From contig NZ_LGDV01000191.1 of the NCBI RefSeq assembly GCF_001280015.1, positions 46,436 through 110,435 of the forward strand: a stretch of 64,000 bases of DNA, given 5' to 3'. This DNA is from Streptomyces sp. MMG1121 (GTDB lineage Bacteria; Actinomycetota; Actinomycetes; Streptomycetales; Streptomycetaceae). Positions 2,912 to 48,154 of the stretch are shown piece after piece (positions within the stretch are counted from its first letter, which is position 1; every line of letters starts with the position of its first letter). A program made the position numbers and the translations under genes. The notes under the pieces were generated by a model. It did not search any database. It was not told the origin of the DNA and was given only the letters and a program-made list of their open reading frames with translations.

Positions 2912-5644
2912 GTGCAGAAAATGCGGCCTCGGCGCACAGGCAGGCAGACGGACCCCGTGGGGACCGCCGAGCGGACCCCCGTGGGCAGCGGCCGCCCCAC
3001 TCATGTGCGCACCCGGCTGATCGTCGCCGTCGCCGTGGTGGCCGCCGCCATCGCCGGTGCCGGGGCGCCCTCCCTGCTCGGCGCTTCCCAGCAGGTCAGT
3101 GACTCCCAGGACCTGGTGACGCTGGCCGCCCGCACCCAGGACGCGCTCCAGCTCGCGCACTCACTTGCCGACGAGCGCGACGAGGTCACCTCCTACATCG
3201 CGGCGGGGCGTGCCAAGTCCAAGGCGCCGTCAGAGGACCGCAGCGCCCGCGTCGACCGCGAGGTCGAGGATCTGCGCGCCGACTCCGACACCCCGGCGGA
3301 CCTGCGCGGCGACCTCGACGGCATCGCCGCCGTCCGCCGGTCCGCGCTCACCGGCAAGACCACCGCCCTCCAGGCCCACCAGGCCTACTCGCAGACGATC
3401 GCCGCCCTGCACAAGGTCGCCGAGCAGCTGGCCGAGCAGTCGCCCCCGCGGGCCGGCTCCGGCGCCCACGCGCTCGCCGAACTGGACACCGCCGTCCAGC
3501 AGTCCGCCGCCGCCCGCGGGCTGCTGCTGGCCGCGCTGAACGTGCCCTCCGCCTCCCGGACGGTGATCAGCCCCGTCACCGGCCTGCCGACCACGACCTC
3601 CACCGCCTCGGAGGCCGACAGGAAGCAGCGCGACGGCCTCACCGCCGCCGCCCAGCAGGCCCGGCTGCGTGCCGACGCGGCCCTCGCCGACTTCCGCGAG
3701 ACCGCTCCGCAGTCCGCCGTCGACTCCTACGACTCCACGGTCACGGGTTCCGACGTCAACTCGGCGGACACCTACCTGGCCACGCTCACCGGCCAGCCCA
3801 CCCTCGCCGACAGCGAGCTGACCACGAGCACCAAGAAGCTGGACGCGGCCCTGTCCGCCCGGGTCGACCTGATGCGCGGCGCGGAATCGGCCCTCTACGA
3901 CCACCGCACCAAGGACCTGGCGAAACTCCGGGACGACGACGTCACCGCCCTGGAGATCCGCATCGCCGTGCTCGGCGCCCTGATGCTGGTGGCCGTGGGC
4001 ATCGCGACGGCCATGGCCCGCACGCTCACCCGCCCGCTGTCCGTCCTGCGCCGGGGCTCGGCCCGGCTGGCGGAGTCCGAGGACCCGGCGGCCCAGGAGC
4101 CGATCGCCTTCACCGGCCGCAACGACGAGTTCGCCCAGGTGGTCCGCGCGGTCAACGCCCTGCACGGGCACGCGGCGGCCCTGCACGAGCGCGTGAGCAC
4201 GCTGGAGACGGACCGCAAGCACCTGGTCGGCCAGCGCCAGAAGATGGCCGACGCCCGTGCGGAACTCCACGCCGAACTGGCCGACGCGGAAGCCCAGTTG
4301 CGGCGCCTGCGCACGAGCATCGGCGGTACGTTCGTCAACCTCGCCCTGCGCACCCTCGGCCTGGTCGAGCGTCAGCTCGCCGTCATCGAGGGCCTGGAGG
4401 AGCGCGAACAGGACCCCGACCGCCTCGCCACGCTCTTCAAACTGGACCACTTCGCCACGGTCATGCGCCGGCACAGCGAGAACCTCCTGGTCCTCGCCGG
4501 CACCGAGCACGTCCAGCAGCACCACGGCCCGGTCCCGCTGGTCGACGTCGTCCGCGCGGCGGTCAGCGAGATCGAGCGCTACGAGCGCGTCCGTATCGCC
4601 GCGCTGCCCCCGCACGCCCACGTGGCGGGCTTCGCGGCCGACGACCTCTCCCATCTGCTGGCCGAACTGATGGAGAACGCCACGTCGTTCTCCCCGCCGG
4701 ACCTGCCGGTCGAGGTCTCCGGCTGGCTCCTGGAGAGCGGCGAGGTGATGCTCTCGGTCCAGGACGAGGGGATCGGCATCGCGGCGGACCGCCTCGACCG
4801 CCTCAACGCCCGCCTGGCCGACTTCGACCCCGAGTCCCACTACGACAACGAGGGCGACGCCGGTCTCGGCCTCGGCCTCTACGTCGTCGCCCGCCTCGCC
4901 CACCGCCACGGCGTCCGGGTCCGGCTGCGCGAGCAGAAGCAGGGCGGCATCGCGGCGGTCGTGGTCCTGCCCGCCACCCTCCTGACCGAGGCCCCGCCTG
5001 CCGCCCTGCCCCCGCAGACCTCGGCCATGGGCACCACCGGCGCCTTCTCCCTGCCCGGCGCCGACGCCGAGGTCAACTCCAACGTCCTGCACGGCCGCAC
5101 GAAGGACACCGACCCGCTGGTGACCCTGGCGGAGCAGGTGATCCGGGCCGAGGGAACCGCGGTCCACGAGCAGGCCGAGCCGAGCGCCGCCCAGCACACG
5201 GCAACCCGCCCGAAGGCCCCGGCGGAGACGCCCGCCGAGACGACGATGGAGCTGCTGCTCCCGGACCTGACGCAGGAGCCGGCACCCGCGGCCCCGGCGG
5301 CACCCGCGGCCCCGGCGGCCGCCGACGGCGAGGACGAACGCGCCGAGACCGAGGTCGAAGCCGAGGCCGAGGCCGAGACCGAAGGCGAGACGGTCACGGC
5401 CAAGGGCCTCCCCAAGCGCACCCCCAAGATCACCGCACCGACCCGCGCCCCGCGCCAGCGGACCGGCACCGTCGACGCCGAAGCCCTCCGCAGGAGACTC
5501 GGCGGCTTCCGCCGCGGCGCCCAGGCCGGCTACCGCGACGTAGAGGCGGAGATCGAAGAACAGACCGCCGGCCACCAGCGGCCGACCAGCTACGCACACG
5601 CCGAAGAAGCCACGGGGGGCACAGCCGAGGAGGCAAGCAGTTGA
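2912..5644 (+). CDS. cvnA: Conservon sensor histidine kinase-like protein CvnA
   Basis: About 910 aa. A short basic start leads to a membrane segment (RLIVAVAVVAAAIAGAG), an extracellular region of roughly 300 aa, a second segment around residue 350 (IAVLGALMLVAVGIATAMA), a HAMP-like stretch, a coiled dimerisation region with KLDHFATVMRRHSENLL, and a HATPase domain with LMENATSFS, DEGIGI and GLGLGLYVVARLA. The C-terminal 200 residues are Pro/Ala/Glu-rich and probably disordered. CvnA proteins are membrane heads of small GTPase modules unique to actinomycetes. GTG 2912 is chosen; TTG 2900 and ATG 2921 are alternatives. The stop overlaps cvnB. Confidence 0.88.
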   Translation: MQKMRPRRTGRQTDPVGTAERTPVGSGRPTHVRTRLIVAVAVVAAAIAGAGAPSLLGASQQVSDSQDLVTLAARTQDALQLAHSLADERDEVTSYIAAGRAKSKAPSEDRSARVDREVEDLRADSDTPADLRGDLDGIAAVRRSALTGKTTALQAHQAYSQTIAALHKVAEQLAEQSPPRAGSGAHALAELDTAVQQSAAARGLLLAALNVPSASRTVISPVTGLPTTTSTASEADRKQRDGLTAAAQQARLRADAALADFRETAPQSAVDSYDSTVTGSDVNSADTYLATLTGQPTLADSELTTSTKKLDAALSARVDLMRGAESALYDHRTKDLAKLRDDDVTALEIRIAVLGALMLVAVGIATAMARTLTRPLSVLRRGSARLAESEDPAAQEPIAFTGRNDEFAQVVRAVNALHGHAAALHERVSTLETDRKHLVGQRQKMADARAELHAELADAEAQLRRLRTSIGGTFVNLALRTLGLVERQLAVIEGLEEREQDPDRLATLFKLDHFATVMRRHSENLLVLAGTEHVQQHHGPVPLVDVVRAAVSEIERYERVRIAALPPHAHVAGFAADDLSHLLAELMENATSFSPPDLPVEVSGWLLESGEVMLSVQDEGIGIAADRLDRLNARLADFDPESHYDNEGDAGLGLGLYVVARLAHRHGVRVRLREQKQGGIAAVVVLPATLLTEAPPAALPPQTSAMGTTGAFSLPGADAEVNSNVLHGRTKDTDPLVTLAEQVIRAEGTAVHEQAEPSAAQHTATRPKAPAETPAETTMELLLPDLTQEPAPAAPAAPAAPAAADGEDERAETEVEAEAEAETEGETVTAKGLPKRTPKITAPTRAPRQRTGTVDAEALRRRLGGFRRGAQAGYRDVEAEIEEQTAGHQRPTSYAHAEEATGGTAEEASS

Positions 5645-26804: not shown

Positions 26805-26847
26805 GTGCCCCCGGCAGGATTCGAACCTGCGCACACGGCTCCGGAGG
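26805..26847. repeat. attL, 43-bp att repeat
   Basis: Begins GTGCCCCCGGCAGGATTCGA and ends CTCCGGAGG; identical over 43 bp to 48112-48154. It copies the 3' half of tRNA-Arg, from the anticodon loop to the discriminator base. Identity stops sharply on both sides. Confidence 0.95.
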
Positions 26848-36571: not shown

Positions 36572-38803
36572 GTGAAGCACCCCGACGACGACAACGAACT
36601 CTTCAACCGACTCGAAGCCGAGATGGCCACCGACTCCCGCCCCGACACGGGCGGTGAGGTAGTCGACCTCGACAAGGCCCGATCGGCGCGTGCCGAGTCG
36701 ACCGACCCGAGCGCCCGCCCCGGCGCCGACCGGTCGCCCGACTCGCCCGCCGAGGAGTCGGCCGACCCGACCACCCGCGCTATGGTCGACCAGCCGACCC
36801 CGAAGGCCACCGGTCCGGGCTACCTCGGTCGGCTCGCCGCCGCCAAGCGCCGGGCCGTGATCCCCATCTGGCTGCGCTCGCTGGCCGAACTCAAGACCGC
36901 GTCCGCGTGGGTGGCCCGCCACTACACGCATACCGTGGCCTACCACGCGTTTCGCTCCCCGTGGTACGCCGCCCGCCTGTCCATGCAGGCTCCGGCCGGG
37001 CTGGCCCGGTTCACCGGGGGCACGATGCGGTGGGTGGCCGACCGCGAGGGCGAGCCGGTCCGCCTCGCGGCCGTGCGCCGCGAGGACGCCGCCGAGTACC
37101 TGAAGCTCTCGCGGCAGCGCGACGGACGGGTCCGACTGCGCACGCTGGTGGCCGTGCTGGGCATGTTCGTGGGCTTCGGTCTGGCGCTCGCCCTGTACGT
37201 GCTCGCCCCCGGCTGGCTGCAAGCCGTCTCGGTCGGCGCCCTGGTGCTCGCGCTCGGGGCCGCCGGACGCAAGGCCGATGATCCGGTTATCCACAGGGCT
37301 GTGGAAGTTCCGAAGGCATCCAAGCTCACGTCGGACATCGTGCTGCGGGCGCTTGGTGCGATCGGCATTGCCGCGATCAACCAGGCGCAGTCCAAGGGCC
37401 GGGACGGGTTCGAGTTCACGGCCCCGATCACCCGCGACGGCCCCGGCTGGCGGGCAGAGGGCGACCTGCCCTTCGGCGTGACCGTCACGGACGTGATCGA
37501 GAAGCGGGAACGCCTCGCGTCGGGACTGCGCCGGCCGCTGGGCTGCGTGTGGCCGGAGGCGGAGTCGGAGGAGCACCCCGGCCACCTCGTTCTGTGGGTC
37601 GGTGACCAGACCCTCAAGGCCGCACGGAAGCCCGCGTGGCCGCTGCTGAAGTCCGGCACGGTCGACCTGTTCAAGCCGGTCGCCTACGGCACCGACCAGC
37701 GCGGACGGTGGGCCGAGGTCACGCTCATGTTCATCGCCGGGATCATCGGCGCCATCCCCCGCATGGGCAAGACCTTCCTGCTCCGGCTGCTGCTGCTCAT
37801 CGCCGCCCTCGACCCGCGGGCGGAAGTGCACAGCTACGACATGAAGGGCACCGGCGACCTGGACCCGGTCGGCGAGGCCGTCTCACACCGGCACGGCGTC
37901 GGCGAGGAGGACGCGACGATCCTGTACGCGCTCAACGACTTCCGCGCCCTGCGCGAGGAACTGCGGCGCCGTACCAAGGTGATCCGCTCGCTGCCCCGGG
38001 ACATCTGCCCCGAGAACAAGGTGACCAGCGCACTCGCGGACAAGCGCTCCCTGGGACTGCACCCGATCGTGGTCGGTGTGGATGAGTGCCAGGTTCTGTT
38101 CGAGCACGCCGAGCACGGCAAGGAGTTCGAGGAGATCGCCACCGACCTGGTCAAGCGCGGTCCCGCCACCGGGATCGTGCTGCTGCTCGCCACGCAGCGC
38201 CCCGACGCCAAGTCGCTGCCCACCGGCATCTCGGCGAACGCGAGCACGCGGTTCTGCCTGAAGGTGATGGGCCAGACCGAGAACGACATGGTTCTCGGCA
38301 CGTCCTCCTACAAGCGTGGGGTGCGGGCCACGATGTTCGCGTGGGGTGACAAGGGCCTGCACTACTTCGTGGGTGAAGGCTCCGACGCCCGGATCGTCTC
38401 CAGCACGTTCCTGGACGCGCCCATGGCCGAGCGCGTCGCGGTCCGCGCCCGCAGCGTGCGGGAGAAGGCCGGACTGCTGTCCGGCTACGCACTCGGGGAG
38501 GCACCCGAGGCGGTCACCGGCCCGTCCTACGACCTGCTCGCCGACGTCGCGGCCGTGGTGCCGGAGACCGAGGAGCGGGTGTGGAACGAGCGGATCGCCG
38601 CCCGCCTCGCCGAACTGCGCCCCGAGGTCTACGGCGGCTGGAGGGGCGAGAACGTCACCAGCGCGCTCAAGCCGCACCACGTCCGCACCCGCGACGTGGC
38701 GGGGACGACGGACGACGGCACCCGCACCACCCGCCGGGGCATCGCCCGCGCCGACCTCATGAAGGCGATTGCGGAGCGTAGCGAAAACCCGGGCGCCGCA
38801 TAG
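36572..38803 (+). CDS. FtsK/TraB-type conjugal DNA translocase
   Basis: The 743-aa protein is the main transfer protein of the element, moving double-stranded DNA between hyphae. After an acidic start, two membrane helices lie around residues 190-230 (LVAVLGMFVGFGLALALYVL, SVGALVLALGAAG). The motor domain has Walker A in IPRMGKTFLLRLL and Walker B in IVVGVDECQVLF, plus LLLATQRPDA. The C-terminal part probably holds the winged helix that reads the clt repeats. GTG 36572 lies behind the structured leader. Four 8-bp repeats follow the gene. Confidence 0.92.
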   Translation: MKHPDDDNELFNRLEAEMATDSRPDTGGEVVDLDKARSARAESTDPSARPGADRSPDSPAEESADPTTRAMVDQPTPKATGPGYLGRLAAAKRRAVIPIWLRSLAELKTASAWVARHYTHTVAYHAFRSPWYAARLSMQAPAGLARFTGGTMRWVADREGEPVRLAAVRREDAAEYLKLSRQRDGRVRLRTLVAVLGMFVGFGLALALYVLAPGWLQAVSVGALVLALGAAGRKADDPVIHRAVEVPKASKLTSDIVLRALGAIGIAAINQAQSKGRDGFEFTAPITRDGPGWRAEGDLPFGVTVTDVIEKRERLASGLRRPLGCVWPEAESEEHPGHLVLWVGDQTLKAARKPAWPLLKSGTVDLFKPVAYGTDQRGRWAEVTLMFIAGIIGAIPRMGKTFLLRLLLLIAALDPRAEVHSYDMKGTGDLDPVGEAVSHRHGVGEEDATILYALNDFRALREELRRRTKVIRSLPRDICPENKVTSALADKRSLGLHPIVVGVDECQVLFEHAEHGKEFEEIATDLVKRGPATGIVLLLATQRPDAKSLPTGISANASTRFCLKVMGQTENDMVLGTSSYKRGVRATMFAWGDKGLHYFVGEGSDARIVSSTFLDAPMAERVAVRARSVREKAGLLSGYALGEAPEAVTGPSYDLLADVAAVVPETEERVWNERIAARLAELRPEVYGGWRGENVTSALKPHHVRTRDVAGTTDDGTRTTRRGIARADLMKAIAERSENPGAA

Positions 38804-41953: not shown

Positions 41954-43317
41954 CCGCCGAGGAACTGCCCGCACCCACCAACCCGCTCGCCGTCGCCCGG
42001 CGCCTCCTGCCCGACTGGCAGACCGAGGACGGACACCTGACCCGCCGGCGCTGGCGCGGCTCGTGGATGCGCTGGACCGGTACCAGCTGGCGCGAGCTGG
42101 ACGAGGCACAGGTACGTGCCCACATGTACGAGCGCCTTGAACACGTCGTCTACCAGACGCCCGGCAAGGACGGACAGCCCGAGGAACGCGACTGGGCACC
42201 GACCAAGCAGAAGATCAACAACCTCCTCGACGCGCTCGGGGCAATCACGCTTCTGGCCACCGACACCGACGCCCCCGCATGGCTCGACGGCCAGCAGGAC
42301 GGCGGCCCGATCGTGGCGTGTGAGAACGGGCTGCTCCGGATCCGTGACCGGCAGCTTCTGCCGCACACTCCCGGTTTCTTCAACCTCGTCTCCGTCCCCT
42401 TCGCCTACGACCCGGACGCCACCGCACCGGCCTGGGAACGGTTCCTGGCGCAGATCTGGCCCGACGACTCCGACGCGATCACCGCGCTTCAGGAGTGGTT
42501 CGGCTACGTCCTGTCCGGCCGCACCGACCTGCAAAAGATCCTGCTCATCGTGGGCCCGTCCCGCTCCGGCAAGGGCACGATTGCGCGGGTGTTGAAGGCG
42601 CTGGTCGGCAAGGAGAACCTTGCCGGGCCGACGCTCGCCGGGCTGGGCACGAACTTCGGGATGTCGACTCTGATCGGGAAATCGCTGGCGGTCATCTCCG
42701 ACGCCCGGCTGTCCGGCAACGACAACAGCCAGGTGGTAGAGCGGCTGTTGACCATCTCCGGTGACGACACGATCGACGTGGACCGCAAGTTCCGCGAGCA
42801 GTGGACCGGCAAGCTGCCGTCCCGGCTGATGATCCTTTCCAACGAACTGCCGCACTTCGGCGACTCCTCCGGCGTCATCGCGAACCGGTTCGTCCTGCTC
42901 AGCATGCGGGTTTCATGGCTGGGCAAGGAAGACCCCACCCTCACCGACCGCCTCACCGCCGAGATGCCCGGGATTCTGAACTGGGCCCTGGAAGGACTCG
43001 CGCGTCTTCAGCGGATCGGCCGGCTCACCGAACCCGCTTCCAGCCGTGAAGCGGTCACCACCATGCGGGACTCCGCCTCACCTACGTCCGCGTTCGTCCG
43101 CGAGCGCTGCACCACCGGCCCCGCGTGCACCGTCGCCGTGGACGACCTGTGGGCCGTCTGGCGGGAGTGGGCCGAGGACAACGGCGTCCGCGCCGGCACG
43201 AAACAGCTCTTCGGCCGCAACCTCCTGTCCGTCATCCCCCAGCTCAACCGCACCCGTCCCCGCGCCCCCTCGGGCGAGCGGATCGCTACCTACAACGGCA
43301 TCACCCTCGCCGGTTGA
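41950..43317 (+). CDS. P4/D5-type primase-helicase (superfamily 3)
   Basis: The 455-aa protein has the D5_N region (PAWERFLAQIWPDDSDAITA, LQEWFGYVLSGRT) and a superfamily 3 helicase core with Walker A in VGPSRSGKGTIARVL, a Walker B region around SLAVISDARL and sensor ILSNELPHFGDSSG. It unwinds the origin for the primase-polymerase encoded just upstream. Paired inverted repeats follow its stop and may be the origin it acts on. Confidence 0.9.
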   Translation: MTAEELPAPTNPLAVARRLLPDWQTEDGHLTRRRWRGSWMRWTGTSWRELDEAQVRAHMYERLEHVVYQTPGKDGQPEERDWAPTKQKINNLLDALGAITLLATDTDAPAWLDGQQDGGPIVACENGLLRIRDRQLLPHTPGFFNLVSVPFAYDPDATAPAWERFLAQIWPDDSDAITALQEWFGYVLSGRTDLQKILLIVGPSRSGKGTIARVLKALVGKENLAGPTLAGLGTNFGMSTLIGKSLAVISDARLSGNDNSQVVERLLTISGDDTIDVDRKFREQWTGKLPSRLMILSNELPHFGDSSGVIANRFVLLSMRVSWLGKEDPTLTDRLTAEMPGILNWALEGLARLQRIGRLTEPASSREAVTTMRDSASPTSAFVRERCTTGPACTVAVDDLWAVWREWAEDNGVRAGTKQLFGRNLLSVIPQLNRTRPRAPSGERIATYNGITLAG

Positions 43318-43336
43318 GCCGACAATCCGCCGGGTC

Positions 43337-43495
43337 GCGGCCCATCGCGGCCCACCTCGCCTGACCTGCGCTTTTCCCACACCCCACCACCGGCCCATCG
43401 TGGCCCACCGCTTCCAGGCCGCGGGCCGCGATGGGCCGCACAACACCGCCACAAAGCTGCAGGTCACAGCCTTGGGCCGCGATGGGCCGCGACCC
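43337..43495. repeat. Paired inverted repeats, candidate origin
   Basis: Four related blocks: GCGGCCCATCGCGGCCCACC (43337-43356), CGGCCCATCGTGGCCCACC (43391-43409), then inverted GCGGGCCGCGATGGGCCGC (43421-43439) and TTGGGCCGCGATGGGCCGCG (from 43472). They lie between helicase and excisionase genes, a fitting place for an iteron-type origin or an excisionase-regulated promoter. Confidence 0.5.
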
Positions 43496-43553
43496 ACAGC
43501 ATTGTGAACCCAACCATGCCCCGGACCGCCCTCAGTCTTCCCCGAGGAGTGTC

Positions 43554-43745
43554 ATGGCTCGTGCCCGTGACGAGATGCTCACCATCCCCGAAGTGATCGA
43601 AGAGATAGGCGTACCGCGAGCGACGTTCTACCGCTGGCGGCAGTACAAGAAGGGCCCGAAGTCCATCAAGCTCCCGAACGGCGCGGTGCGAATCCGGCGG
43701 TCCGAACTCAGTCGGTGGCTCCAGACGCTGGAGGAGAGCGCGTGA
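43554..43745 (+). CDS. xis: Excisionase-like HTH protein
   Basis: The 63-aa protein is a MerR/AlpA-type helix-turn-helix: LTIPEVIEEIGVPRATFYRW, then RIRRSELSRWL. Small proteins of this type beside a tyrosine integrase direct excision. GAGGAG precedes the ATG. Its stop overlaps the integrase start (GTGA), so the two are co-produced. Confidence 0.85.
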   Translation: MARARDEMLTIPEVIEEIGVPRATFYRWRQYKKGPKSIKLPNGAVRIRRSELSRWLQTLEESA

Positions 43746-45184
43746 CGAAGGACACCGACAGCGGAGCCGAGCAGAACAACCGCTCGGCTCCGGAGGGGTT
43801 TTCACTCGATGTCCGCCTGTGGAAGGTGTCCAAGGCGCAGAGCAAGACCCGTCCCTACCAACTCCGTTGGAAAGTCGGAGGAAAGGTAAGTAGCGCCACC
43901 TTCGCTACGGTGGCCCTCGCGGAGAGCCGCAGATCTGAACTGTGGCAGGCAATGCGCCGCGGCGAGGCATTCCGCATCACGGATGGTTTGCCTGAATCCG
44001 AGGTACGTGCCGAGGTCAGTGCGGAGCAAACACGTGAGGAACTGCCCTGGTTCGCGTTCTGCCGCGAGTACATGGCGATGCGCTGGCCGACTGCCGCGGC
44101 CAAGACCCGTGAGAGCATCGCCGACGGGCTCGCCGCGGTGACGCTGGCTCTGGTGGAGCAGGAACCTAAAATGCCGTCACCGGAAGAGTTGCGTCTCGCC
44201 TTCCGGTGGGCGGTTGTTCCCAAGAACGCCGAGCTTGACCCGCCGGAGGAACTTGAAGACGCGTACGGGTGGATCTTCAAGAAATCGCTTCTCGTCTCCT
44301 CGTTGGAAGACCCGAAGATTCTTCGCGATGTTCAGTATCGGATTTCCTTCAAACTGGACGGCGCCCCCGCAGCGGGGGAGACCTCCCGTCGCCGTCGGCG
44401 CGCGCTCAGCACCGCAGTTGAATACGCCATCGAGCGCAAGCTTCTAACGGAGAACCCACTTACTGCCATCAAGAGGGTGAAGAGTTCCTCATCGGACCGT
44501 GTGGACCCCCGCGTTCTCGTGAACAAGACGCAGGCCGCTCAACTACTCGCATCGGTCTCGTACGTCGGGACATGGGACCGCAAGAAGGGCCGGCGCCTGG
44601 TGGGCTTCTACGCGGTCATGTACTTCGCGGGGCTCCGCCCGAGTGAGGCTGTGGGCCTCAAGAAGACTGATTGCTTTCTCCCGGAGAAGGGGTGGGGCGT
44701 TCTGACGCTTCACGACACGCACCCCGTATCGGGCAGGCAGTGGACCGACAGCGGAGAGCGCCACGATAAGCGCGGCCTGAAGTCGAGGGAAGCCAAGGAA
44801 GACCGACCGGTCCCGATCCCCCCGCCACTCGTGGCCATGCTCCGTGCCCACCTGAAGGAGTTCGGCACGGCCAAGGATGGGCGGCTCTTCACGAACGAGC
44901 GGGGCGGTCTCGTGGGCAGCAGCACCTATTGGCGCGTGTGGCGGGACGCTCGGGAGTACGCGCTGCCGCCGGACCTTCAGACGTCCATCCTCGGCGGGCG
45001 GCCGTACGACCTGCGGCACACGTGCATCACGACGTGGCTGAACGCCGGAGTGCCCGTGGCCGAGGTCGCCCGTCGGGTCGGCAACTCGCCCGAGGTGATC
45101 CATCGCGTCTACGAGGGGTGCATCTACGGCCAGGAGGAGGTCATGAACAAGAAGATCGAAAAGGAGCTGGATTGGCCCGAGTGA
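43742..45184 (+). CDS. int: Tyrosine recombinase integrase
   Basis: The 480-aa protein has an arm-type DNA-binding start, a core-binding SAM-like domain and a C-terminal catalytic domain. Catalytic residues visible are Arg in FAGLRPSEAVG, the His-x-x-Arg region RPYDLRHTCITTWL, and the nucleophile Tyr in VIHRVYEGCI. It integrates the element into tRNA-Arg by recombination between the 43-bp att sites. Unlike the usual order, it is not next to the att site: 2.9 kb of cargo follows. Confidence 0.94.
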   Translation: MTKDTDSGAEQNNRSAPEGFSLDVRLWKVSKAQSKTRPYQLRWKVGGKVSSATFATVALAESRRSELWQAMRRGEAFRITDGLPESEVRAEVSAEQTREELPWFAFCREYMAMRWPTAAAKTRESIADGLAAVTLALVEQEPKMPSPEELRLAFRWAVVPKNAELDPPEELEDAYGWIFKKSLLVSSLEDPKILRDVQYRISFKLDGAPAAGETSRRRRRALSTAVEYAIERKLLTENPLTAIKRVKSSSSDRVDPRVLVNKTQAAQLLASVSYVGTWDRKKGRRLVGFYAVMYFAGLRPSEAVGLKKTDCFLPEKGWGVLTLHDTHPVSGRQWTDSGERHDKRGLKSREAKEDRPVPIPPPLVAMLRAHLKEFGTAKDGRLFTNERGGLVGSSTYWRVWRDAREYALPPDLQTSILGGRPYDLRHTCITTWLNAGVPVAEVARRVGNSPEVIHRVYEGCIYGQEEVMNKKIEKELDWPE

Positions 45185-45336: not shown

Positions 45337-45552
45337 ATGACCAGCTATACACCAGGCACCGGCGCAGAGCCACGCACCGGCGCAGAGCCCATCATGCTGC
45401 TTATCCCCGAAGACAAGCAGCCTGACGTGGAGGCGCTAATAAACAGCGGAAAAGTTGTCAGGGCCACCGCTAAAAGCACCGGGACTAGCTGTGATGGGTC
45501 GGGGCCGGGCTGGGTATGCGGCGACAAGGACGAAGACCAGCCTTGCACTTAG
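45337..45552 (+). CDS. Putative graspetide precursor peptide, 71 aa
   Basis: The small protein has a leader-like part (IMLLIPEDKQPDVEALINSG) and a C-terminal stretch of about 24 residues, TGTSCDGSGPGWVCGDKDED followed by QPCT. That stretch is rich in Thr/Ser and Asp/Glu, the donors of side-chain ester links made by ATP-grasp ligases, and has three Cys. GGAGG lies four bases before ATG 45337. It comes first in the cassette, and a strong hairpin after it would give the excess expression usual for precursors. No match to a named precursor family is known to me. Confidence 0.6.
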   Translation: MTSYTPGTGAEPRTGAEPIMLLIPEDKQPDVEALINSGKVVRATAKSTGTSCDGSGPGWVCGDKDEDQPCT

Positions 45553-45566
45553 CCCCGTTCCCTCAC

Positions 45567-45601
45567 TTCGGTGTGGTGGTAACTTAAGCCGCCACACCGA
45601 A
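45567..45601 (+). terminator. Hairpin between precursor and enzyme genes
   Basis: TTCGGTGTGGTGG pairs with CCGCCACACCGAA (13 bp, one G-T) around a 9-base loop, 15 bases after the peptide stop. There is no T-run. It likely acts as a partial terminator that raises precursor mRNA over ligase mRNA. Confidence 0.65.
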
Positions 45602-45632
45602 CGTGCCGCATCAATCACCGTCTGGCGGGTCG

Positions 45633-45833
45633 ATGCCAAGATCACCACGGACTCAAGCTGACGATCGCCCTCTCCCTTTCGTCCTCAGGGTTGCCACAGA
45701 GTGGATTGCCATGGATAACGAGGCAATTACAGGAGAGAGCTTCTTCCTGCGAAGCACTCGACTGACGGGTAAGATCTTGACTACGAAAGATGGTCGGGAC
45801 ATAGAATTCTCCGACCTGGGGATCGACCCGTGA
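45633..45833 (+). CDS. Small leader-like protein coupled to ATP-grasp gene
   Basis: The 66-aa protein contains RPLPFVLRVATEW, resembling the PFFARFLE-type leader helix of microviridins and the PFxLR motif of putative ATP-grasp-modified peptides. A beta-like part follows (LTGKILTTKDGRDIEFSDLG), also seen before the core in such precursors. Yet it ends just there, with no Thr/Asp core. Its stop overlaps the ligase start (GTGA). It may be a leader acting in trans, a precursor with lost core, or an unrelated helper. ATG 45633 is chosen; GTG 45603 is possible. Confidence 0.5.
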   Translation: MPRSPRTQADDRPLPFVLRVATEWIAMDNEAITGESFFLRSTRLTGKILTTKDGRDIEFSDLGIDP

Positions 45834-46810
45834 TCTTGGTCATTTCAAACTCTGAATTCGATGGCCATGTCCCGCCAGTCACAGCCGAGCTCTCTCGGCG
45901 CGGAAGGCACTTTGTAATCTACAATCCTGCTACGTACCCTGATAAATCGTCGCTCACCCTGGAGAGCAGCTCCGATGCCATCAAGGCGTTCTTGAGCATA
46001 GATGATTCACTTATAGATCTCTCTTGCGTGACAAGCGTATGGTATCGGCGACCAGGAGACTTCGCCCTTTCGGATAAGCTGTCTCCGGAAGAGGATAGAT
46101 GGCTTCGAGCTGAGTGTCGCAGTCTCTTCCAGGGATTCTGGAGCGGCGAGTTCCTACCTCAATGGGTAAGTAACCCCGAAGCCATCAGGAAGGCCAGCCT
46201 GAAGGCGGCACAACTTAAGGTCGCCATGGAAATGGGCTTCACTGTACCTCGCTTCACCATTACGAATGACGTGGACCGGGCGTCCCGCTTCATCGCCTCA
46301 TGTCGCCAGGGGACGATCGTAAAAACACTTGGTAACCCCTCCATCTCCTACCCTGACCTAAATGGAACGATATACACGCATCTGGTTTCCAATCAAGATA
46401 TGGACCTGATATCCTCAGTGCGTTTTGGCCCTACGTACCTTCAGGAGTGCATAAAGAAGAGAATGGACGTCCGAGTCACCGTAATTGGTGAAAAAGTGTT
46501 CGCTGTAGGTATTGACTCGCAAAACTTCGAAGAATCCAGCATCGATTTTCGGCGCAGTCAGATATACACCTTGCCCCATCATCCAATCGAGCTGCCCAGA
46601 AATTTGAGTAGGTTGTCCATCGAGCTGGTAGGTCGACTCGGGTTGAGATTTGGCGCGATTGATTTCATTCTGACACCCGATGGGGATTACATCTTCCTGG
46701 AAATTAACCCTAACGGGCAATGGTATTGGCTCGAAGAAATAACGGGCCTACCGCTGGTTGCAGCTATGTGCGATTTGCTTACTGCCGGAGCAGGTTTTCC
46801 TGCTGGGTGA
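45830..46810 (+). CDS. ATP-grasp peptide ligase, MvdC/MvdD-like
   Basis: The 326-aa protein has the marks of graspetide ligases: SVWYRRPGDF in the N-terminal domain, KAAQLKVAMEMGFTVPRF, a nucleotide-site IVKTLG, DVRVTVIGEKVFAVGI, and the signature FLEINPNGQWYWLEEITGLP. These enzymes activate Asp/Glu side chains with ATP and join them to Thr/Ser (esters) or Lys (amides) in a precursor peptide. The gene is lower in GC than the element backbone. It is coupled to the leader-like gene. No transporter, protease or methyltransferase gene is beside it. Confidence 0.87.
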   Translation: MILVISNSEFDGHVPPVTAELSRRGRHFVIYNPATYPDKSSLTLESSSDAIKAFLSIDDSLIDLSCVTSVWYRRPGDFALSDKLSPEEDRWLRAECRSLFQGFWSGEFLPQWVSNPEAIRKASLKAAQLKVAMEMGFTVPRFTITNDVDRASRFIASCRQGTIVKTLGNPSISYPDLNGTIYTHLVSNQDMDLISSVRFGPTYLQECIKKRMDVRVTVIGEKVFAVGIDSQNFEESSIDFRRSQIYTLPHHPIELPRNLSRLSIELVGRLGLRFGAIDFILTPDGDYIFLEINPNGQWYWLEEITGLPLVAAMCDLLTAGAGFPAG

Positions 46811-46845
46811 ATCTAGGATTACATGCGATCTCGGCGGAGGCTTCT

Positions 46846-47100
46846 ATGTCTGGTGAAAATAGCCGGTCGAACATTCTTCCTTGTACAGAAGATGGCGATA
46901 TGGCAAGCGGGGGGCCATCCGACCTGACTATCCCGATCGGCCGGCAAGTCATTGAGTTGCCGGCCGCTATTGCGGAGCGGTTGCGGTCAGTTACTAGTTT
47001 GGACCTGCGACTGAATGCCACGCAAGTCTATATTACCAGGGTAGACAGTGCCTATAGGATGTACCTAGGAGATGTCTGCCATGCGGACTTAGATGGCTGA
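46846..47100 (+). CDS. Small protein downstream of ATP-grasp ligase
   Basis: The 84-aa protein begins with a Ser/Asp-rich stretch (NILPCTEDGDMASGGPSDLT) followed by a mixed domain (IPIGRQVIELPAAIAERLRS, DLRLNATQVYITRVDSAYRM). GGAGG lies five bases before ATG 46846, 35 bases after the ligase stop. No family is recognised. It could be a second substrate, an immunity factor or a helper. Its low GC matches the ligase gene, so both probably arrived together. Confidence 0.6.
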   Translation: MSGENSRSNILPCTEDGDMASGGPSDLTIPIGRQVIELPAAIAERLRSVTSLDLRLNATQVYITRVDSAYRMYLGDVCHADLDG

Positions 47101-47279: not shown

Positions 47280-47936
47280 CTAGTTCTGAGAGCTACTCTG
47301 ACCGGTCCCCTTGGTATTGGCGCGTCGTTCTTTGAAGACCGTGAACTGTGCTGCTAGAACGTAAAGGTAGTCCAGAAGTGCCTCAGCGAGGGCCAGTGCG
47401 TCGGCAGCGTCCTCGCGGCTTACCCCTGTACCAGTGAAGTGCGCTCCCTGGTTACCGAGAACTCAAAGTTCCTGAGCCCACTCCAAGAGCCGTCCATGGA
47501 TTCTGCCCTCGTTCTTGAGCTGCTCAAGCATCTTGACAAGAGGCTTGGGTCGGCCGTTCGCGCCCGCCACTCCCTGCTCGCTGCAAACACCTTCGAGCGT
47601 GCGGCGGACCATGACGGCCGTGGCTGTGTACGCCTTGGCCTTAAAGCACTGACGTGCTTCCTCGTGTTCTCGCCGCAAGGACTGAGGAACGTGATGGCTC
47701 AAGGGGCGGAGCTGCTCGGGCCAGAGCACGTCCGGACCATCCCAGCCTTGCGCGTAGTCCACATCGACGGTGAGGAATGGTTCGTTGCAGACGCTGCATC
47801 GGGCCAGCTCAAGCAGGTACGGCGGCTCTTCCACGCCACCGCCGGCGGCTTCGCTGGCGATCGTGGCCAACGCGGGCTTCTCACAGTGTGGACATATGAG
47901 GGGGAAGGTGTGCCCGACCCTGTACTCACGGCTCAT
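47280..47936 (-). pseudogene. DUF4145 protein interrupted by in-frame TGA
   Basis: The first 157 codons encode an N-terminal zinc-ribbon (CPHCEKPA, CSVCNEPF) and the DUF4145 helix region (EEARQCFKAKAYTATAVMVR), ending EWAQEL. After a TGA at 47463-47465 the same frame continues for 60 codons with VLGNQGAHFTGTGVSREDAA and ALLDYLYVLAAQF, the expected C-terminal half. Family members usually read ELRVLGN here, so a CGA to TGA change is likely. Otherwise the gene looks fresh. DUF4145 is common in defence contexts. Confidence 0.8.
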
Positions 47937-48111: not shown

Positions 48112-48154
48112 GTGCCCCCGGCAGGATTCGAACCTGCGCACACGGCTCCGGAGG
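48112..48154. repeat. attR, 43-bp att repeat
   Basis: Identical to 26805-26847. It forms the 3' half of the intact tRNA-Arg gene, so integration restores the tRNA. Confidence 0.95.

What the first reader, a model, noticed from the sequence alone, without database searches (positions are those of the whole stretch)
45337..47100. Putative graspetide cassette carried as cargo of an integrative element
Between integrase and attR lie a 71-aa peptide gene with a C-terminal TGTSCDGSGPGWVCGDKDED stretch, a 13-bp hairpin, a leader-like gene and an MvdC/MvdD-type ATP-grasp ligase ending EINPNGQWYWLEEITGLP. A fourth small gene follows. The candidate core mixes Thr/Ser, acidic residues and three Cys, unlike the graspetide cores I know, and no methyltransferase, transporter or protease is present. 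Lower GC than the element backbone and a position between int and att mark it as an add-on. This may be a new graspetide type.
Basis: partly seen in the sequence, partly recalled or inferred. Interest (0 to 1): 0.88.

Follow-up and report, generated by a model that had tools for sequence, protein, structure and literature searches.

The report
Graspetide-like peptide cassette with two partners
A mobile piece of DNA in a bacterium carries a small four-gene kit that probably ties ring-shaped links into short peptides, and two of its small genes belong to unnamed families found together with a distinct branch of the ring-tying enzyme.

Summary
The ligase belongs to a well-supported separate branch of graspetide-synthetase-like enzymes (63 of 85 tree rows, support 100/100). 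Two small genes mark it. A (45633-45833) has a strict graspetide leader motif in 27 of 27 aligned members and invariant Thr-Thr-Asp-Asp, so A looks the better precursor. B (46846-47100) is the free form of a domain fused to the ligase in 37 of 120 listed homologues. The 71-aa peptide (C) lacks the strict motif, like all 19 C-type peptides tested, though it alone meets a looser form. It has no detectable homology across lineages, but its Ser/Thr-then-Asp tail recurs in the same position. Best model: a partner-bearing graspetide system in which A, and probably C, are cross-linked. Bolder model: A supplies the leader in trans to leaderless C. No convincing Pfam, NCBIfam or PDB match was found for A or B. 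No chemistry was tested.

The parts
26805..26847 (.). left attachment repeat of the integrative element (43 bp)
   Evidence: exact direct repeat of 48112-48154
43554..43745 (+). excisionase-like small gene of the element backbone
   Evidence: open frame directly before int; function recalled from similar elements, not tested
43745..45184 (+). tyrosine integrase
   Evidence: Pfam Phage_integrase 27.5 bits (cut-off 27.1), NCBIfam XerD/XerC-like below cut-off
45337..45552 (+). C: 71-aa peptide with Ser/Thr-Cys-Asp-rich tail, candidate second substrate
   Evidence: open frame with GGGAGG ribosome-binding sequence; no Pfam/NCBIfam family above cut-off
45567..45601 (+). hairpin (14-bp arms, 7-nt loop) between C and A, possible attenuator
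   Evidence: the attenuator role is inferred
45633..45833 (+). A: 66-aa peptide with graspetide-type leader (RPLPFVLRVATEW) and invariant Thr45, Thr51, Asp56, Asp61; best precursor candidate
   Evidence: 25 database proteins by profile; leave-one-out HMM E 1.7e-23
45830..46810 (+). ATP-grasp ligase (graspetide-synthetase-like), start overlaps the end of A
46846..47100 (+). B: 84-aa partner, free form of the C-terminal domain fused to 37 of 120 listed ligase homologues
   Evidence: leave-one-out HMM E 4e-6
48112..48154 (.). right attachment repeat inside tRNA-Arg(ccg)

Best explanation
The cassette is a compact, transporter-less graspetide-type system of a distinct ligase branch. The ligase recognises the PLPFVLR leader of peptide A and, with ATP, joins Thr to Asp side chains in A's C-terminal hairpin, most simply Thr51-Asp56 (inner, four residues between) and Thr45-Asp61 (outer). 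B is a small subunit of the ligase, a separate gene here and fused to the enzyme in many relatives. C is a second, lineage-variable peptide whose Ser/Thr cluster and Asp cluster make it a likely second substrate. Shown: the anatomy, the ligase family and fold, the A and B families and their link to this branch, the A leader motif and invariant residues, the position on an integrative element. Inferred: that the ligase acts on A, the ring pattern, that B binds the ligase, that C is modified, and any biological role.
Against: No modification was observed or testable. The ligase scores below the curated NCBIfam cut-off (249 of 350 bits). The looser published leader motif does not separate A from C in the window: A has it in 25 of 27, C in 1 of 19, and that one is the window's C. 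A's putative core is unusually constant and includes conserved non-reactive residues (Leu44, Gly46, Gly54, Val/Ile57), which also fits a small beta-hairpin protein that simply binds the ligase. By simple hairpin counting Thr45 would face residue 62, not Asp61, so a bulge is needed (inference). A's similarity to other leaders is short: hhalign aligns 12 columns at 22% probability with one leader set and 8 columns at 0.4% with another. Only three loci could be read in full.
Confidence: 0.45

Rival explanations
1. Split graspetide: A is not a substrate but a stand-alone leader or partner that docks in the leader groove and switches the ligase on in trans, while leaderless C peptides (one in the window, four at the Thermomicrobiaceae locus) are the cross-linked substrates, perhaps held by B.
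For: C lacks the strict leader motif (0 of 19) whereas A has it (27 of 27). C tails show a Ser/Thr cluster followed by an Asp/Glu cluster in 20 of 20 against 140 of 2779 background ORFs; with a Cys between, 14 of 20 against 36 of 2779, and the window gene is the only window ORF of that size class to pass (pattern chosen after seeing the peptides, background includes them). The Pseudonocardia-type C peptides keep the last 25 residues nearly unchanged while the rest varies. The locus L005 has four different C copies but one A. In the laboratory MdnC and AMdnC can be activated by a leader given in trans (passages of PMC5934393; one passage of PMC13003496). Rosaritide synthetase needs a partner protein (PMC13097080 sections 7-9).
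Against: Does not explain why A's C-terminal half has invariant Thr, Thr, Asp and Asp. C of the window is not detectably homologous to the other C peptides, so C may be a different kind of gene in each lineage. The window C meets the looser leader motif, so it may not be leaderless.
Confidence: 0.28
2. The ligase does something other than ring formation, such as adding amino acids to the C-terminus of A or C or joining two proteins, and A and B are structural partners.
For: The wider fold group includes RimK and LysX/ArgX ligases, and the score is below the NCBIfam cut-off.
Confidence: 0.14
3. One reading: the 71-aa peptide is the only precursor, and the other two small genes are chance neighbours of the ligase.
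For: Good ribosome-binding sequence, Asp-Lys-Asp-Glu-Asp tail and an attenuator-like hairpin after the gene; looser leader motif PIMLLI present.
Against: A and B go with the ligase branch across phyla, and B is fused to it in many; C is the least conserved of the three.
Confidence: 0.07

Closest known systems
Microviridin/chryseoviridin synthetases MdnC, MdnB, AMdnB, CdnC
   Same: same ligase fold and DFR motif; leader with Pro-Phe motif read by the ligase
   Different: 26-32% identity to the model in structural alignment; the TxKxPSD core (recalled) is in 0 of 27 A and 0 of 19 C peptides; extra partner B and a second peptide type
Fuscimiditide (ThfA/ThfB) and related actinobacterial graspetides
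   Same: two Thr then two Asp in nested order, as in conserved A positions; PF-type leader in Streptomyces and Kribbella loci
   Different: none of the four cassette genes matches a methyltransferase; A's inner loop is 4 residues, not 10; core much more constant
Rosaritide (MirA/MirB/MirC), partner-dependent graspetide
   Same: TIGR04187-type synthetase that needs a second protein; Ser/Thr donors and D-x-D-x-D acceptors resemble the window C tail (DKDED)
   Different: the partner there is a SurA/PpiC-like protein (TIGR04500); A, B and C have no such match; no PCAT transporter in the cassette
Actinomycete integrative elements (AICE) with Prim-Pol and tRNA attachment
   Same: tyrosine integrase, Prim-Pol and D5-type helicase frames, GntR regulator, tRNA repeats
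   Different: carries the peptide cassette between int and att; no FtsK/Tra match was found by Pfam in the one large ORF tested for it

Membership tests
Graspetide synthetase systems | MvdC/MvdD-type ATP-grasp ligase (fold and family) | tested here: met
Graspetide synthetase systems | DFR motif | tested here: met
   D239 F240 R241 invariant in 27 and in 55 aligned ligases
Graspetide synthetase systems | adjacent precursor with Pro-hydrophobic leader motif near the N-terminus | tested here: met
   strict motif: A 27 of 27, C 0 of 19; looser motif within 40 residues: A 25 of 27, C 1 of 19 (the window's), background 953 of 5127
Graspetide synthetase systems | Thr/Ser donors before Asp/Glu acceptors in the C-terminal core | tested here: met
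   A invariants T45 T51 D56 D61; C tails 20 of 20 by a pattern set after the fact
Graspetide synthetase systems | side-chain ester or amide links, loss of 18 Da each | not testable with these tools
   needs expression and mass spectrometry
TIGR04187 (GRASP_SAV_5884) as curated by NCBI | score at or above the curated cut-off of 350 bits | tested here: not met
   249.1 bits
Rosaritide-type (group 21) | TIGR04500 partner protein in the cluster | tested here: not met
   no NCBIfam match in window A, B or C, nor TIGR04500 among the A family; genes beyond the cassette not tested for it
Microviridins | TxKxPSD core motif (recalled) | tested here: not met
   0 of 27 A, 0 of 19 C, not in window B
AICE-type integrative element | tyrosine integrase, tRNA attachment repeats, Prim-Pol replication gene | tested here: met
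AICE-type integrative element | FtsK-like transfer protein | tested here: inconclusive
   743-aa ORF 36572-38803 has no Pfam match at E 0.01; several other ORFs of the element were not scanned

The most novel reading that the evidence does not exclude
A natural split-precursor graspetide system: the leader is its own gene product (A), shared by several leaderless, lineage-variable Ser/Thr-Asp peptides (C) that the ligase cross-links with help of a dedicated domain (B), so new substrates can be swapped in without a leader, here on a mobile element.
Probability: 0.25. Interest if true: 0.85.

Novelty: new variant of a known kind. Interest (0 to 1): 0.57.

Why it matters
Partner-dependent graspetide biosynthesis was reported as unprecedented only in 2026 (PMC13097080, abstract). 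This branch offers two very small, unnamed partner families tied to one enzyme lineage in Actinomycetota and in Thermomicrobia/Chloroflexota, and a simple in vitro way to ask whether a graspetide leader can be supplied naturally by a separate protein. If so, leaderless peptides could be cyclised by adding one small protein, which is useful for peptide engineering. The location on an integrative element would also make it a mobile peptide cassette.

Tried and rejected
Homology of the 71-aa peptide to the peptides upstream of A elsewhere: HMMs built without the window peptide do not recover it at E 10, and the Chloroflexota-type HMM does not recover the Pseudonocardia peptide. An earlier HMM that included all three gave hits only because they were in it. 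I therefore claim position and composition, not homology.

A as a ligase domain: no A-like stretch in 120 listed ligases at E 0.1. B as a known domain: no Pfam or NCBIfam match for the window B (one other B gave a chance-level 0.12) and no PDB sequence match with a 12-row profile at E 1; B was not modelled alone, so nothing is said about a new fold. In the fused model B is a two-stranded hairpin at moderate confidence (residues 370-380 and 383-393). Best matches for A were at chance level: NCBIfam E 0.034, Pfam 0.12, PDB 0.91.

Search for sister loci: at the thresholds used, this ligase branch was found only in the starting genome of each survey: 1 of 392 same-genus genomes (E 1e-70), 1 of 394 of the class, 1 of 248 relatives, 1 of 62 of the genus of the L004 genome, 1 of 158 of the class of the L005 genome (these four at E 1e-85). 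In 400 genomes of the L005 phylum, 23 matched at E 1e-60, but the next best after the starting genome was 4e-81 against 6e-138. A was in 1 of 327 genomes of the family of the L004 genome. In the larger surveys only the first few candidates of a genome were scored in full (for example 5 of 26), so misses are possible. Viral contigs: 2 distant ligases, no A. Plasmids: 56 records with a ligase, all under 60% identity, best listed 36.8%; for A only two chance matches at E 0.7; no similar DNA. Comparison with empty sibling elements was not possible.

Print: searches showed no paper describing the A or B families in their listings. Supplements could not be read, so the branch may be one of the groups 25-43 of PMC13097080.

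Full report
What is there. The window holds a 21-kb integrative element bounded by a perfect 43-bp repeat (26805-26847, 48112-48154), the right copy inside tRNA-Arg(ccg). Its backbone has a GntR regulator, a Prim-Pol frame and a D5-type helicase frame and a tyrosine integrase at 43745-45184. Between integrase and right repeat lies a cassette of 53.5% GC against 67.3% in the backbone and about 71% outside. It holds, in order: C, the 71-aa peptide (45337-45552); a hairpin with 14-bp arms (45567-45601); A (45633-45833); the ligase (45830-46810, overlapping A by four bases); and B (46846-47100). C and B have clear GGGAGG/GGAGG sequences before their starts; that of A is weaker (GGCGGG).

The ligase. 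It matches the graspetide maturase models TIGR04187, MvdC and MvdD, below their curated cut-offs, and the Pfam MvdD pre-ATP-grasp and RimK domains above theirs. Its best solved relatives are MdnB, AMdnB, CdnC, MdnC and PruB. A search found 948 relatives, of which 120 were listed. In a maximum-likelihood tree of 85 ligases (23 of the 37 B-fused and 47 of the other 83 listed homologues, the ligases of L004 and L005, and 13 outgroup loci; drawn with a midpoint root), 63 rows form one branch with support 100/100 and a stem of 0.58 changes per site; every row in the tree with a known A or B is in it. Three ligases with a contig-matched A (P0019, P0096, P0100) were not put in the tree. The DFR motif, described as critical in PMC13097080 (sections 7-9 read), is invariant.

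Gene A. From three loci (window; Pseudonocardia dioxanivorans L004; a Thermomicrobiaceae MAG L005) I built a profile that found 25 database proteins, some of them near-copies of L004 or L005; I aligned 24, leaving out P0145 (E 9e-5). In the 27 aligned rows Arg12, Pro15, Phe16, Arg19, Trp24, Leu44, Thr45, Gly46, Thr51, Asp56 and Asp61 never vary. An HMM without the window copy finds it at E 1.7e-23, the next window ORF being at 2.7. No member has a convincing Pfam or NCBIfam match. The N-terminal RPLPFVLR stretch is the Pro-hydrophobic kind of motif that PMC8939145 (sections 5 and 7 read) derives for graspetide leaders. A strict PF form of that motif occurs in 27 of 27 A peptides, in ORFs just upstream of 32 of 74 outgroup ligase genes, in 37 of 3997 background ORFs, and in 0 of 19 C peptides. 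The looser published form is less telling: A 25 of 27, C 1 of 19 (the window's own C, PIMLLI), background 953 of 5127 within the first 40 residues. Some outgroup leaders are nearly the same words (PLPFVLANS in L015, L018, L020, L025 and L028) and are followed by an acidic or aromatic D-x-x-L-type stretch as in A (by eye); profile alignment supports only the short motif. The invariant Thr45, Thr51, Asp56 and Asp61 have the order and nesting of fuscimiditide (Thr3-Asp22 outside, Thr7-Asp18 inside), and the inner loop of four residues equals the smallest loop that the passages report as closed (PMC12291112). AlphaFold does not fold A alone (pLDDT 57), as expected of a peptide; with 27 rows this is weak evidence.

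Gene B. The fourth gene aligns with a C-terminal extension found in 37 of 120 listed ligase homologues (E <= 1e-3; consensus PVGxQTIPL...ATRAWLExK....LLHVGD). Without the window copy the profile finds it at E 4e-6, the next ORF at 0.55. In Pseudonocardia B is a separate gene on the opposite strand just downstream (L004 5969-6220); in L005 it is fused. Fusion and retention across strands argue for a functional tie. In the model of the fused homologue P0049 (mean pLDDT 92) B forms a two-stranded hairpin of moderate confidence.

Gene C. At the same place, before A, the Pseudonocardia locus has a 73-aa peptide and L005 has four peptides of about 95-99 aa. Database relatives include three Pseudonocardia-type peptides whose last 25 residues are nearly constant while the rest varies. 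All 20 C peptides examined have a Ser/Thr cluster followed by an Asp/Glu cluster, against 140 of 2779 ORFs of similar size; requiring a Cys between, 14 of 20 against 36 of 2779, and in the window the 71-aa gene is the only ORF of that size class that passes. The pattern was defined after looking, the background includes the positives, and several of the 20 are near-copies. The three lineages' C peptides are not homologous by HMM. The window tail DKDED recalls the D-x-D-x-D acceptors of rosaritide (PMC13097080, section 8).

Coupling. All three distinct loci of the branch that could be read have a C-like peptide, A, ligase and B. Nine ligase/A pairs from databases share contig length and source (P0002/P0136, P0009/P0131, P0019/P0125, P0032/P0123, P0034/P0134, P0041/P0135, P0045/P0138, P0096/P0124, P0100/P0128), two with neighbouring locus tags; in Pseudonocardia sp. 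SCN 72-86 the C peptide has the next tag. For the other 16 A proteins the neighbouring ligase could not be seen. None of 110 other fetched loci, some of them short, has A or B at E <= 1e-3. The branch is rare: in seven genome surveys it was seen only in the genome each survey started from, at the thresholds used and with only the first candidates of a genome scored in the larger ones.

How it probably works. The most economical reading is that A is the cognate precursor: leader read by the ligase, hairpin closed by two Thr-Asp links, with B as ligase subunit and C as a further substrate. The main rival keeps C as the only substrate and makes A a leader acting in trans, which is known to work in the laboratory for MdnC and AMdnC (passages of PMC5934393; one passage of PMC13003496). 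The two differ on a single measurable point: whether A itself loses water. I give 0.45 to the first and 0.28 to the second.

Novelty. By fold and motifs this works like a graspetide system, and A meets the published precursor rules. It is not a member of TIGR04187 by its cut-off, nor rosaritide-type by partner, nor microviridin-type by core. Neither A nor B has a name in the libraries searched. Five literature searches listed no account of them, but the survey supplements were out of reach. I therefore rate it a new variant of a known kind.

Noticed in passing
window 47463-47936 (-): A DUF4145-like ORF between the cassette and attR; its Pfam match ends at profile position 60 of 88 where the frame meets a stop, so it is probably a truncated second cargo gene.
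   Followed up: partly
L002 (own genome, G000:C140:2502-3437): A second graspetide-type ATP-grasp gene in the same genome, 33% identical, with no A or B in the fetched stretch.
   Followed up: no
phage records KF114876.1 (59297-60070) and MT835913.1 (8833-9771): MvdC-type ligase relatives (39% and 36% identity) in a Leptospira phage and a phage record from human faecal samples, and in two IMG/VR contigs (L084, L085): graspetide-like ligases carried by phages.
   Followed up: no
L026 and L040, just upstream of the ligase: Small peptides starting with K-L-H/Q-I-G-D-L; the LHIGD word resembles the LHVGD end of B (B profile E 0.25 for L026), possibly chance, possibly a hint that B mimics a leader.
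   Followed up: partly
L011, just upstream of the ligase (end about 57 bases before the match at 5001): A long precursor with at least three Thr-rich/Asp-rich repeats, a likely multi-core graspetide in an Anaerolineales MAG.
   Followed up: no
window 43312-43354 and 43473-43515: A 43-nt imperfect inverted repeat (81%) with GGCCGCGATGGGCCGC-like units just before the excisionase-like gene, perhaps a regulatory or origin site of the element.
   Followed up: no
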